From Nitrosomonadales bacterium (GTDB lineage: Bacteria; Pseudomonadota; Gammaproteobacteria; Burkholderiales; Gallionellaceae): DNA of 64,000 nucleotides. A program made the position numbers and the translations under genes. Below are positions 493 to 32,322 of this stretch, in pieces. Each line of letters starts with the position of its first letter. Within the stretch, counting starts at the first letter, position 1. The notes beneath the pieces are model-generated. The model was given only the letters and a program-made list of their open reading frames with translations. It did not search any database and was not told the DNA's origin. The DNA lies in the NCBI GenBank assembly GCA_016235045.1, contig JACRME010000001.1:62001-126000 (forward strand), given 5' to 3'.

Positions 493-1452
493 ATGACGAA
501 CAACCGAACGGGCATTGCAAGTGTTCCACCCTTGATAATGAAACCCGCCATGCCCGTTTCCCTCTCCCCAACCCTCTCCCGCAAGCGGGCGAGGGGGCGA
601 ACGAATCGCTGCGCAAGTTTTACGTTAATGCTTATCACTGCCGCCGTATTGGCGCTGGGCGCAACTTCCGTCCGGGCGGAAGAGGCCATGCCGGGCATGG
701 ATCAAGGCGCGATGGATCACGGCCACATGCAGGGCGGCAGCGCCCCACCCGATGCGCGCGACCCGCATGCCTACTCGGGGGGCCAGGACTTCGGCCCGAT
801 TCCGCGACCGCGTATGGGGGACGAGGAAAATTTCGGCTCGCTGCTGATCGACCGGCTCGAACGTGTGCACGCGCGCGGCAACTCGTCCACGGCGTATGAG
901 CTGCAGGCCCGCTTCGGACGCGACTATGACCGCGCCGTGCTCAAGGCCGAGGGCGACATCGACGGCGGCAAACTGCACGATGCGCACACCGAATTGCTTT
1001 GGGGGCACGCGCTGGCCGCCTACTGGGACACGCAACTCGGCGTGCGCTACGACAGCGGCACCGCGCCGGGCCGTGGCTGGCTGTCCTTCGGCATCCAGGG
1101 CCTGGCGCCCTACTGGTTCGAAGTGGACGCCACCGCTTATGTCGGCACACAGGGACGCACGGCATTCCGGTTTGCGGCGGAATACGAGTTGCTGCTGACG
1201 CAGAAGCTGGTTTTGCAACCGCGCATGGAAGCGAATTTCTATGGCCGGGGCGACGCCGCGCGCGCACTGGGCAGCGGCTTGTCCGATCTTGCCGTTGGGG
1301 TGCGCCTGCGCTACGAGATACGGCGCGAGTTCGCCCCCTACATCGGCGTAGAACAAGCTGCCAGGTTCGGGGGAACCGCGGATTACGCGCGGGCCGCCGG
1401 TGAAGACGCCAACGTGACGCAAGTCGTCGCCGGGGTGCGATTCTGGTACTGA
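493..1452 (+). CDS. copB: Copper resistance outer-membrane protein CopB
   Basis: About 319 residues. The start at 493 was chosen because GGAG lies 6 nt upstream; an ATG at 463 abuts the copA stop but has no ribosome site. A signal peptide with hydrophobic core LMLITAAVLALGA is followed by the Met/His-rich segment MPGMDQGAMDHGHM, typical of CopB, then the conserved PRMGDEE region and an outer-membrane beta-barrel ending in FWY. It should bind or sequester copper at the outer membrane together with CopA. Oddity: bases ~559-597, within the signal-peptide n-region, are a GC-rich palindromic repeat read in frame (SLSPTLSRKRARG), making the leader unusually long and basic. Confidence 0.88.
   Translation: MTNNRTGIASVPPLIMKPAMPVSLSPTLSRKRARGRTNRCASFTLMLITAAVLALGATSVRAEEAMPGMDQGAMDHGHMQGGSAPPDARDPHAYSGGQDFGPIPRPRMGDEENFGSLLIDRLERVHARGNSSTAYELQARFGRDYDRAVLKAEGDIDGGKLHDAHTELLWGHALAAYWDTQLGVRYDSGTAPGRGWLSFGIQGLAPYWFEVDATAYVGTQGRTAFRFAAEYELLLTQKLVLQPRMEANFYGRGDAARALGSGLSDLAVGVRLRYEIRREFAPYIGVEQAARFGGTADYARAAGEDANVTQVVAGVRFWY
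559..597 (+). repeat. GC-rich palindromic repeat, family A copy 1, inside copB
   Basis: The segment has the form CCCTCTCCCCAACCCTCTCCCGC-AA-GCGGGCGAGGGG, split here at its spacer; the last CCCTCTCCCGC and GCGGGCGAGGG nearly pair. The same core recurs in dinG (31320-31466) and acnA (46100-46141). It contributes about 13 codons to the CopB leader without a stop or frameshift. Confidence 0.75.
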
Positions 1453-30252: not shown

Positions 30253-32322
30253 GTGACCGCCGAAGTCGAACGTTTCTTTTCCGAACAAAGCCCGCTTGCC
30301 ACTGAAGTCGCGTCGTTCCGTCCGCGCGCACAGCAGCGCGACATGGCGCTGGCCGTGGCGGAGGCGATACGCGACAACGCCATTCTGGTGGCCGAGGCGG
30401 GTACGGGCACGGGCAAGACCTTTGCCTATCTGGTGCCTGCGCTGCTGGCGGGCGGCAAGGTGGTGATCTCCACCGGCACCAAGAATTTGCAGGATCAGCT
30501 ATTCCAGAAAGACCTGCCGATGGTGCGCGATGCGTTGAAGGCGCCGGTATCGGTGGCACTGCTCAAGGGGCGCTCGAACTATGTGTGTCACTACCACCTG
30601 TCGCTGGCGCAATCGAACGGCTTGTTCAAGACGCGCGAGGATGTGAAGCATCTGGCGAAGATCGTGACCTATGCCAAGGTGACGCAGAGCGGCGACAAGA
30701 GCGGGTTGGCGGATGTGCCGGAGAACGCGCCGATCTGGATGCACGTGACTTCCACGCGCGACAATTGCCTTGGTCAGGAATGCCCGCAGCACAACGAGTG
30801 TTTCGTACTCAAGGCGCGCAAAGAGGCAATGGAGGCGGATGTGGTGGTGGTGAACCATCACCTGTTCTTCGCCGACGTGATGCTGCGCGACGAGGGCGTG
30901 GCCGAGTTGCTGCCCGCCTGCAACACCGTGATCTTCGACGAGGCGCACCAGTTGCCGGAGACGGCCAGCCTGTTCTTCGGCGAGAGCCTGTCCACTTCGC
31001 AGTTGTTCGACCTGTCGCAGGATGCGCGCATCGAGGCGCTGACTTCGGCCAAGGATTTTGCGGCATTGCCGGTGGCATGCGACGAACTGGAGAAGGCAGC
31101 GCGCGATTTGCGGCTGGCGTTCAAGAAGGAAGGCCGCATGGCGGCGGAGGCGACGGCGGGCATCAAGGAATTTGCGCCTGCGTTGAAGACGCTGGGGGAG
31201 AAATTGAAGAACCTGACAGGGTTGCTGGAGAAGCAGGCGGAGCGGAGCGAGGGGTTGGAGAATTGCTGGCAGCGGGCGCGGGGGTTGGTGGAGCAACTTA
31301 AGTTGTGGATGTGCGAACAACCCTCTCCCCAACCCTCTGATGGAACTACTAGCCATTCGACTAAGCTGCCAAAAGACGGCAGCCAAGTCGCTGGTTATCC
31401 CACGAGTGGGAGAGGGAGCAACACCTCCCCTCTCCCGCCTGCGGGAGAGGGGTCAGGGGAGAGGGTAAGCGGTATGGTTCGCTGGCTCGAAGTCTTCCAC
31501 CATTCGCTGCAACTCAACACCACCCCACTCTCCATCGCCGACATCTTCAAGAAGCAGATCAGCGGCCATCCGCGCGCCTGGATATTCACTTCCGCGACAC
31601 TGGCAGTGAAGCAGAACTTCTCGCATTACCAGCACGAGATGGGCCTGACCGAAGCGCGCACCGCGTGCTGGGACAGCCCCTTCAACTACCCGGAACAGGC
31701 ATTGCTGTATGTGCCGAACAATCTGCCGGAACCGAACACCGAGGGCTACACCGATGCGGTGGTGCAAGCCGCTTTGCCGCTGATCGAGGCGAGCAAGGGC
31801 CGCGCCTTCCTGCTGTTCACCAGCTTGCGCGCCATGCAGCGCGCCTACGAAATCCTGCAGGCCGAGTTCGACCGCAAAGGCTTTAAATATCCGCTGATGA
31901 TCCAGGGTGAAGGTTCGCGCAACGAGCTACTCACGCGTTTCCGCGACCACGGCAACGCGGTGCTGCTGGGCAGCCAGTCGTTCTGGGAAGGGGTGGATGT
32001 GCGCGGCGAGGCGCTGTCGCTGGTGATCATCGACAAGCTGCCGTTCGCGCCGCCGGACGATCCGGTGCTGGCGGCGCGCATCGCCGAACTGAACAAGCAG
32101 GGGCGCAACGCGTTCATGGAATTCCAGTTGCCGCGCGCCATCATCAATCTCAAGCAAGGTGCGGGACGGCTGATACGCGATGAAAAGGACAGAGGCGTGC
32201 TGATGATCTGCGACCCTCGTCTGATCTCGAAACACTATGGCAAGCGCATTTGGCAGAGCCTGCCGCCGTTCAGGCGCACGCGCGACGAAAACGAAGCCGT
32301 CGCCTTCTTCAATCAGGCTTAA
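30253..32322 (+). CDS. dinG: DinG/YoaA-family ATP-dependent helicase with in-frame repeat insert
   Basis: 689 residues from GTG 30253. XPD-like superfamily 2 helicase: Walker A AEAGTGTGKT, four Cys of the Fe-S cluster (YVCHYH, NCLGQEC, ECFVL), DEAH box IFDEAHQLPE, and C-terminal motifs LLGSQSFWEGVDV and QGAGRLIRDEKD. It unwinds 5' to 3' and resolves R-loops or fork structures. Residues ~355-405 (31318-31468) are a palindromic repeat, not helicase sequence; the frame stays open and the flanks WMCEQ and MVRWLEVF match the family on either side. The insertion falls in the region between the two helicase domains. Confidence 0.92.
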   Translation: MTAEVERFFSEQSPLATEVASFRPRAQQRDMALAVAEAIRDNAILVAEAGTGTGKTFAYLVPALLAGGKVVISTGTKNLQDQLFQKDLPMVRDALKAPVSVALLKGRSNYVCHYHLSLAQSNGLFKTREDVKHLAKIVTYAKVTQSGDKSGLADVPENAPIWMHVTSTRDNCLGQECPQHNECFVLKARKEAMEADVVVVNHHLFFADVMLRDEGVAELLPACNTVIFDEAHQLPETASLFFGESLSTSQLFDLSQDARIEALTSAKDFAALPVACDELEKAARDLRLAFKKEGRMAAEATAGIKEFAPALKTLGEKLKNLTGLLEKQAERSEGLENCWQRARGLVEQLKLWMCEQPSPQPSDGTTSHSTKLPKDGSQVAGYPTSGRGSNTSPLPPAGEGSGERVSGMVRWLEVFHHSLQLNTTPLSIADIFKKQISGHPRAWIFTSATLAVKQNFSHYQHEMGLTEARTACWDSPFNYPEQALLYVPNNLPEPNTEGYTDAVVQAALPLIEASKGRAFLLFTSLRAMQRAYEILQAEFDRKGFKYPLMIQGEGSRNELLTRFRDHGNAVLLGSQSFWEGVDVRGEALSLVIIDKLPFAPPDDPVLAARIAELNKQGRNAFMEFQLPRAIINLKQGAGRLIRDEKDRGVLMICDPRLISKHYGKRIWQSLPPFRRTRDENEAVAFFNQA
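31320..31466 (+). repeat. Compound palindromic repeat, family A copy 2, inside dinG
   Basis: Two units. 31320-31418 opens with CCCTCTCCCCAACCCTC and closes with GTGGGAGAGGGA, and encloses an imperfect stem (TAGCCATTCGACT..GCTGCC with GGCAGCCAAGTCGCTGGTTA, split for length). 31427-31452 is a perfect 12-base palindrome CCCCTCTCCCGC-CT-GCGGGAGAGGGG, continuing to AGGGGAGAGGG. Total ~147 bases with no stop in the gene's frame. Confidence 0.8.

What the first reader, a model, noticed from the sequence alone, without database searches (positions are those of the whole stretch)
31318..31468. In-frame compound palindromic repeat inside a DinG-family helicase
About 50 codons of this gene are a dispersed GC-rich repeat element, with a perfect 12-base palindrome and a second nested stem. 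The frame stays open and family sequence resumes on both sides. The pattern recalls the in-frame Rickettsia palindromic elements; if the family is general here, it is a mechanism that adds new peptide segments to essential proteins.
Basis: partly seen in the sequence, partly recalled or inferred. Interest (0 to 1): 0.8.

Follow-up and report, generated by a model that had tools for sequence, protein, structure and literature searches.

The report
Nested mobile hairpins inside working genes
In a group of environmental bacteria, short hairpin-shaped DNA repeats have settled inside other repeats and, without breaking the reading frame, inside ordinary housekeeping and DNA-repair genes, so these proteins probably carry extra stretches made from mobile DNA.

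Summary
The gene is yoaA (DinG-type repair helicase); about 48 residues near 353-406 are missing from 19 of 29 same-genus orthologues. The insert is one repeat inside another. A GC-rich hairpin repeat (48 and 39 exact pattern matches for two variants) is interrupted by a 60-bp element, "A" (38 matches in this genome, 32 with E below 1e-7). A has conserved ends, a covarying stem of variable sequence, and length 60 or 54 bp in 142 of 167 copies. Joined flanks show A sits before a T (145 of 155 sites; CT 120, TT 25), mostly inside other dispersed repeats. Of 165 copies, 12 lie in-frame in conserved genes (PurL, YoaA, Mfd, IleS, NifN, HrpA and others); of 61 further copies tested for disruption, one weak copy is a candidate. 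The hairpin repeat without A is in-frame in CysS, CoaBC and AddA/AddB-like genes. In-frame palindromes are a known kind (Rickettsia RPEs, intragenic REPs); new here are element A, its nesting, and its frame-neutral length. A lacks both REP tags and flanked none of 20 Y1-transposase loci, so its mover is unknown.

The parts
30253..32322 (+). yoaA, DinG-type DNA repair helicase gene (689 aa from GTG), uninterrupted frame
31320..31337 (+). left part of the host repeat; 31320-31330 pairs with 31456-31466
31338..31397 (+). element A, 60 bp: 5' tail, bulged stem, variable apical stem CTGCC/GGCAG, 3' end GGTTA; inserted at C^T of the host
   Evidence: (G000:C29:93338-93397)
31398..31416 (+). rest of host hairpin 1 (TCCCACGAGTGGGAGAGGG); joined to the left flank it matches 50 uninterrupted stretches in the DNA held
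31427..31452 (+). second hairpin of the host type, perfect 12-bp arms with 2-nt loop; 48 places in the genome match the pattern
31453..31466 (+). right outer stem of the compound insert
572..595 (+). the only other match to the hairpin pattern in the window; near the start of a 329-aa stop-to-stop frame

Best explanation
The insert is the remains of at least two successive insertions of small, non-autonomous, REP-like mobile hairpins. A GC-rich palindrome entered the linker of yoaA in the reading frame; a different 60-bp hairpin (element A) then inserted at a C^T inside that palindrome. Because A is mostly 60 or 54 bp long and usually has three of six frames open, it can enter an already decorated gene without breaking it. 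Selection removes frame-breaking copies, and what remains are tolerated peptide segments in loops or linkers. Shown: repeat identity, nesting, structure, absence from relatives, in-frame recurrence. Inferred: the order of the two insertions, movement on single-stranded DNA by a HUH/Y1-type nuclease acting in trans, translation of the insert, and a near-neutral effect on the protein.
For: 38 matches of A in the own genome and matches in 24 of 24 other same-genus genomes searched. Covariation on 91 distinct copies: 153 double-change cells against 43.6 in shuffles and 11-22 when slid (the alignment was fitted to the model, which leans towards its structure). Lengths 60 (96) and 54 (46) of 167. 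Joined flanks: 70% of 155 match at least 3 uninterrupted stretches, against 12% of 598 control stretches. Site CT 120 and TT 25 of 155. In-frame inside conserved genes: 11 of 165 by the classifier plus a P-type ATPase. Linker of 24 aa in 19 of 29 YoaA orthologues. The PurL insert is 50 extra residues at residue 361 of 6lyk. TnpA_REP nucleases cleave at CT (PMC8266576, passages).
Against: None of 20 Y1 loci examined (of 70 hits in 34 genomes) has A beside it. The nine RAYT loci whose flanks I printed carry other repeats, not A. Two genomes with 12 and 10 A matches have no Y1 hit (G004, G014). No obvious orientation bias along one complete chromosome (origin not located). A lacks the GTAG or CGTC tag. 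Host sites are not always palindromic: joined flanks fold only modestly better than controls (66% against 51% at or below -6 kcal/mol), and CTCTGTG-type hosts do not fold. In G163, four copies share about 45 bp of similar flank, so A can also spread within a larger repeat. No protein or RNA evidence exists.
Confidence: 0.75

Rival explanations
1. A is not independently mobile: host hairpin plus A form one composite that spreads as a unit, or copies arise by recombination between repeats.
For: In G163 four copies share about 45 bp of similar flank around A; many host repeats exist, so conversion between them is possible.
Against: A sits in at least five unrelated repeat families and at differing positions, before T in 145 of 155 cases, and host repeats occur without A.
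Confidence: 0.15
2. The insert is removed from the message or skipped by the ribosome (intron-like or bypass-like), so the protein is unchanged.
For: A folds as a hairpin (three copies folded; pairing kept in 95% of cells).
Against: Skipping would not need an open frame, yet the in-gene copies are stop-free in the frame read while only 44% of the six frames of 148 other copies are open. The in-frame class is defined by openness, so the weight rests on the near-absence of out-of-frame copies in genes among 61 tested.
Confidence: 0.06
3. The insert has been taken into use, for example as a regulatory or binding loop of YoaA.
For: 10 of 29 genus orthologues have an enlarged linker at the same place.
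Against: Inserts differ in sequence, length and even orientation of A between species; genes of unrelated function are hit.
Confidence: 0.08
4. Assembly error or pseudogene.
For: The genome is a draft of 33 contigs.
Against: Frame intact over 689 aa. Two other species have A in the same linker: G007 with a different apical stem and length, G019 in the opposite orientation. Twelve in-gene copies in ten kinds of gene show the same.
Confidence: 0.02

Closest known systems
Rickettsia palindromic elements (RPE; Ogata et al. 2000 and 2002 not seen, known here through passages of PMC10969869 and PMC3733652)
   Same: Dispersed palindromes in-frame within unrelated conserved genes, adding peptide segments.
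   Different: Not Rickettsia; A is 54/60 bp, shorter than the ~150 bp quoted in PMC10969869, has a freely varying apical stem, and mostly sits inside other repeats. Sequence descent not tested.
Intragenic GTAG- and CGTC-tagged REPs (PMC3733652, passages and section 15 read)
   Same: REPs within ORFs of free-living bacteria, many in DNA repair genes and some in tRNA synthetases; recB of two Xanthomonas species hit at about the same site.
   Different: A has no GTAG or CGTC at the 5' foot and no flanking RAYT was found in 20 loci. Section 15 describes dimers and clusters; the word 'nested' does not occur in the paper.
REP/TnpA_REP (RAYT) system and IS200/IS605 (PMC8266576, passages read)
   Same: Bulged hairpin; cleavage at CT resembles the C^T site of A; no target duplication beyond an ambiguous T.
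   Different: No partner transposase identified.
Insertion sequences that target REPs (PMC1525189, PMC11208160; only listing and start of abstract seen)
   Same: A mobile unit inserting into repeated palindromic DNA.
   Different: A is 54-60 bp and can encode no transposase.

Membership tests
Rickettsia palindromic elements | dispersed palindromic repeat | tested here: met
Rickettsia palindromic elements | in-frame within protein genes | tested here: met
Rickettsia palindromic elements | sequence relation to an RPE family | not tested
   no RPE sequence was fetched
GTAG/CGTC REP (element A) | GTAG or CGTC tag at the 5' foot of the stem | tested here: not met
   by eye on the alignments: the 5' foot is AACTACTA; GTAG occurs only on the other strand, at the 3' side
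GTAG/CGTC REP (element A) | flanks a RAYT gene | tested here: not met
   20 Y1 loci searched with the A model, three matches with E above 1 only; about 50 other Y1 hits were not examined
IS200/IS605-type or REP single-strand element | short fixed sequence at the insertion point, no duplication | tested here: met
   CT 120, TT 25 of 155; at most one T ambiguous
IS200/IS605-type or REP single-strand element | orientation follows the lagging strand | tested here: inconclusive
   37 matches on G023 mixed in orientation; origin not located
MITE | terminal inverted repeats with target duplication | tested here: not met
   by eye: ends TGATGGAAC / GTCGCTGGTTA are not inverted repeats; no duplication beyond one T

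The most novel reading that the evidence does not exclude
Element A is a previously undescribed class of tiny, frame-neutral mobile hairpin that homes to C^T sites inside other dispersed repeats, so that genes once decorated become landing pads and essential proteins grow by layered insertions; it is moved in trans by a nuclease not yet identified.
Probability: 0.4. Interest if true: 0.75.

Novelty: new variant of a known kind. Interest (0 to 1): 0.55.

Why it matters
It gives a traceable two-layer example with empty, host-only and host-plus-A sites in related species. It also turns an open question, whether mobile repeats feed new segments into essential proteins and what moves them, into something testable with PurL, IleS, CysS and YoaA.

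Tried and rejected
Rfam gave one chance hit (E 0.67). RAYT as partner: seven Y1 hits in the own genome. RAYTs similar to the one at G000:C29:40727 turned up in the five genomes with most A matches of the 25 counted (G000, G003, G012, G013, G023) and in G016, but they are flanked by GTAG repeats, not A, and only 20 of the 70 Y1 hits were read, so I did not adopt them. Genus-only origin rejected: A is patchy in 22 of 300 genomes of the order, 12 of 134 genera, own genus included and strict filters. The idea that 3-fold lengths are selected in genes: 131 of 147 copies outside the in-gene set are also multiples of three, so no enrichment is shown. Sequence motifs of A in papers: four papers matched one term, unrelated mouse or human work by their listings. 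'Gallionella' with 'repetitive' and 'palindrom' gave 0 papers; a search with 'nested' and five other terms returned two papers, seen as a listing only apart from PMC3733652; subscription journals are mostly absent. Pfam scans of 20 stop-to-stop frames spanning A gave a family in 9; 11 had none and are probably spurious, and one of the 9 (L072, glyoxalase) has A upstream of the domain and was not counted. No structure prediction was run, because loci from the genome search are not on that tool's list of permitted inputs.

Rows dropped: copy L027 missed by a pattern and added by hand; 2 of 167 as duplicates and 16 of 165 as too short for the context test, L113 among them although in-frame; 10 of 165 not used for joins (length outside 53-62 or short flank). 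The coding classifier uses thresholds of my own. Only the 61 copies with coding signal on the same strand on both sides were tested for disruption, from where the upstream gene stops and by eye (the output was cut), not by homology; the 7 opposite-strand, 49 one-sided and 21 no-signal copies were not. The DNA held for one search contains some regions twice and is rich in repeat neighbourhoods, which can raise both counts. For the host repeat only 15 of 48 and 30 of 39 places were examined; of 43 classified, 8 are in-frame, 15 same-strand and not continuous (not tested for disruption), 15 one-sided, 5 without signal.

Full report
WHAT IS THERE. The reported stretch lies in an open 689-aa gene, 30253-32322 (+), which NCBIfam assigns to the DNA repair helicase YoaA (902 bits against a cut-off of 680). 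Inverted repeats are as described: perfect 12-bp arms at 31427-31438/31441-31452, an 11-bp outer stem at 31320-31330/31456-31466, and another stem at 31358-31370/31378-31390. The hairpin pattern is not expected by chance in the window (2 matches, 0.00 in shuffles). The whole stretch has 61 matches at E<=10 in the genome the window comes from, several of them both strands of one palindrome.

TWO REPEATS, ONE INSIDE THE OTHER. Aligning the copies splits the stretch into two families. The inner one, here called element A (31338-31397), reads TGATGGAACTACTAGCCATTCGACTA - variable hairpin - AAGTCGCTGGTTA. The host is a GC-rich hairpin repeat with 48 places matching one pattern and 39 matching another in this genome, and none for the reversed control pattern. 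Taking A out of its flanks gives uninterrupted repeats: of 155 joined sites, 70% match at least three uninterrupted stretches in the DNA held (85% at least one, 24 none), against 12% of 598 control stretches nearby with at least three besides themselves. Hosts include CCCTCTCCC...GGGAGAGGG, CCCTCCCCCTGCAAGGGGGAGGG, a TTCCGGC...GCCGGAA palindrome, CTCTGTG repeats and a CCCTTCGACAAGCTCAGGG repeat. Not all hosts are palindromes: joined flanks fold at or below -6 kcal/mol in 66% against 51% of controls. The insertion point is CT in 120 and TT in 25 of 155 cases. In two copies (L115, L312) the loop of A holds a further inverted repeat.

ELEMENT A IS A REAL STRUCTURED FAMILY. As single-stranded DNA three copies fold better than shuffles (z -3.2 to -4.0). 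On 98 aligned copies (91 distinct) 95.3% of cells pair, with 153 cells changed on both sides against 43.6 in shuffles and 11-22 when the pairing is slid (the alignment was fitted to the model). The apical stem changes freely while mostly staying paired (88% of cells). Lengths among 167 copies are 60 (96), 54 (46) and 25 others. Outside the in-gene set, 131 of 147 copies are multiples of three and 44% of the six frames of 148 copies are open, two forward and one reverse in 78-89%. So A is mostly neutral to a reading frame by construction; selection in genes for this length is not shown.

DISTRIBUTION. The own genome has 38 matches, 32 of them with E below 1e-7; the 24 other same-genus genomes searched have 1 to 50 each. 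In 300 genomes of the order, own genus included, 22 have matches, in 12 of 134 genera, so the family is patchy, as expected of something mobile.

IN GENES. I classified 165 distinct copies by coding signal and frame. Eleven are inside conserved genes with a continuous frame: PurL, YoaA, Mfd and a U32 peptidase in the own genome; a symporter-type MFS protein, an RbbA-like ABC protein, NifN, HrpA and two further YoaA copies in relatives; IleS in a named contig. A twelfth, a P-type cation ATPase of the own genome, was too near a contig end for the classifier. Names come; RbbA, HrpA, the symporter and the U32 subfamily are below NCBIfam's cut-offs. Of 61 copies with coding signal on both sides on the same strand but no continuous frame, one (L240, a weak copy) has the upstream gene ending inside the element; the other flanking products look like different genes (by eye). 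The remaining 93 (49 one-sided, 21 without signal, 7 opposite-strand, 16 too short, the ATPase among the last) were not tested for disruption. So in-frame against disruptive is 12 to 1 candidate among those tested. By eye, eleven of the twelve sit in GC-rich hairpin hosts and one (IleS) in a CTGTCCT tandem repeat. Host repeats without A are in-frame in CoaBC, an AddA-like gene (two sites), CysS (two hairpins), an AddB-like gene and a tandem-95 protein, and one accompanies A in Mfd: 8 of 43 classified loci (AddA and AddB are below cut-off).

THE RESIDUES ARE EXTRA. Of 34 same-genus genomes, 29 gave a YoaA; 19 have a 24-aa linker, mostly LKHWQDGDVPET-like, and 10 have longer ones, 72 aa here. 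Seven of the ten look repeat-derived, one of them (G031) judged from its peptide alone; three (G014, G024, G025) have 29-33 aa without an obvious repeat. G007 carries A with another apical stem and length at the same distance from the left end of the insert, and G019 carries A in the opposite orientation, so at least two entries of A are likely. On the YoaA tree the long linkers are scattered, although they share flanking residues (LKVW..EQ...GV), so one old insertion exchanged between species plus later turnover is as likely as many independent events. In PurL the segment 494-543 has no counterpart in the solved enzyme (6lyk), and in 24 of 31 genus genomes the second part of the match starts only at residues 544-546; of the other six relatives, G023 and G018 have a different repeat-like insert at the same place and four were not read. 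In Mfd, 61 residues (336-396) stand where the solved Mfd chain 9n07_A has 17.

HOW IT PROBABLY WORKS. Best explanation: layered insertion of REP-like mobile hairpins, with purifying selection leaving frame-preserving copies in tolerant loops. Movement on single-stranded DNA by a Y1/HUH nuclease in trans is inferred. TnpA_REP enzymes cut at CT (PMC8266576, passages), matching the C^T site of A. Against it, none of 20 Y1 loci examined carries A, the RAYT loci whose flanks I printed have their own repeats, two genomes with 12 and 10 matches have no Y1 hit, and a complete chromosome shows no clear orientation pattern. Translation of the insert is inferred from the open frames only.

WHAT IS KNOWN. 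In-frame palindromes are established for Rickettsia (described in PMC10969869, passages). REPs inside ORFs of free-living bacteria, notably repair genes and tRNA synthetases, are described in PMC3733652 (passages and section 15). The YoaA, Mfd, AddA-like, AddB-like, IleS and CysS cases fit that picture well. What I did not find in the searches made is element A, or one palindrome family nested in another inside coding sequence. A fails two features of the tagged REPs (tag, RAYT neighbour among 20 loci), so I file it as a new variant, working like RPEs and intragenic REPs.

Noticed in passing
L246 (G000:C28:60000-68000), PurL gene: PurL of this genome has a second in-frame repeat-derived segment, and a third GC-rich half-palindrome after which the amidotransferase part continues in another frame with an ATG just behind a GGGGGAGGG stretch; this could be gene splitting by a repeat that supplies a ribosome binding site, or a frame error.
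   Followed up: partly
L115 (1501-1611) and L312 (G254:C1:778857-778967): 111-bp versions of element A whose apical loop holds a further inverted repeat (GTGGTTGT...ACAACCAC), a third level of nesting, in two different genera.
   Followed up: partly
window 572-595: A second copy of the hairpin lies near the N-terminus of a 329-aa stop-to-stop frame; it may be upstream of the true start.
   Followed up: partly
L250-L254, L257 (RAYT loci): Closely similar RAYT genes flanked by GTAGGTCGGGTTAGCGCAGCGTAACCCGAC-type repeats occur in the five genus genomes with the most A matches of those counted, and in G016; may be shared ancestry.
   Followed up: partly
L300-L304 (G163), L305-L308 (G122): In another family several A copies are identical and groups of them share about 45 bp of similar flank, suggesting recent spread as part of a larger repeat.
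   Followed up: no
L237 (1564-1663): Two A elements directly abutting, one partial, next to a TCCGGCGCAGGCCGGAATCC palindrome.
   Followed up: no
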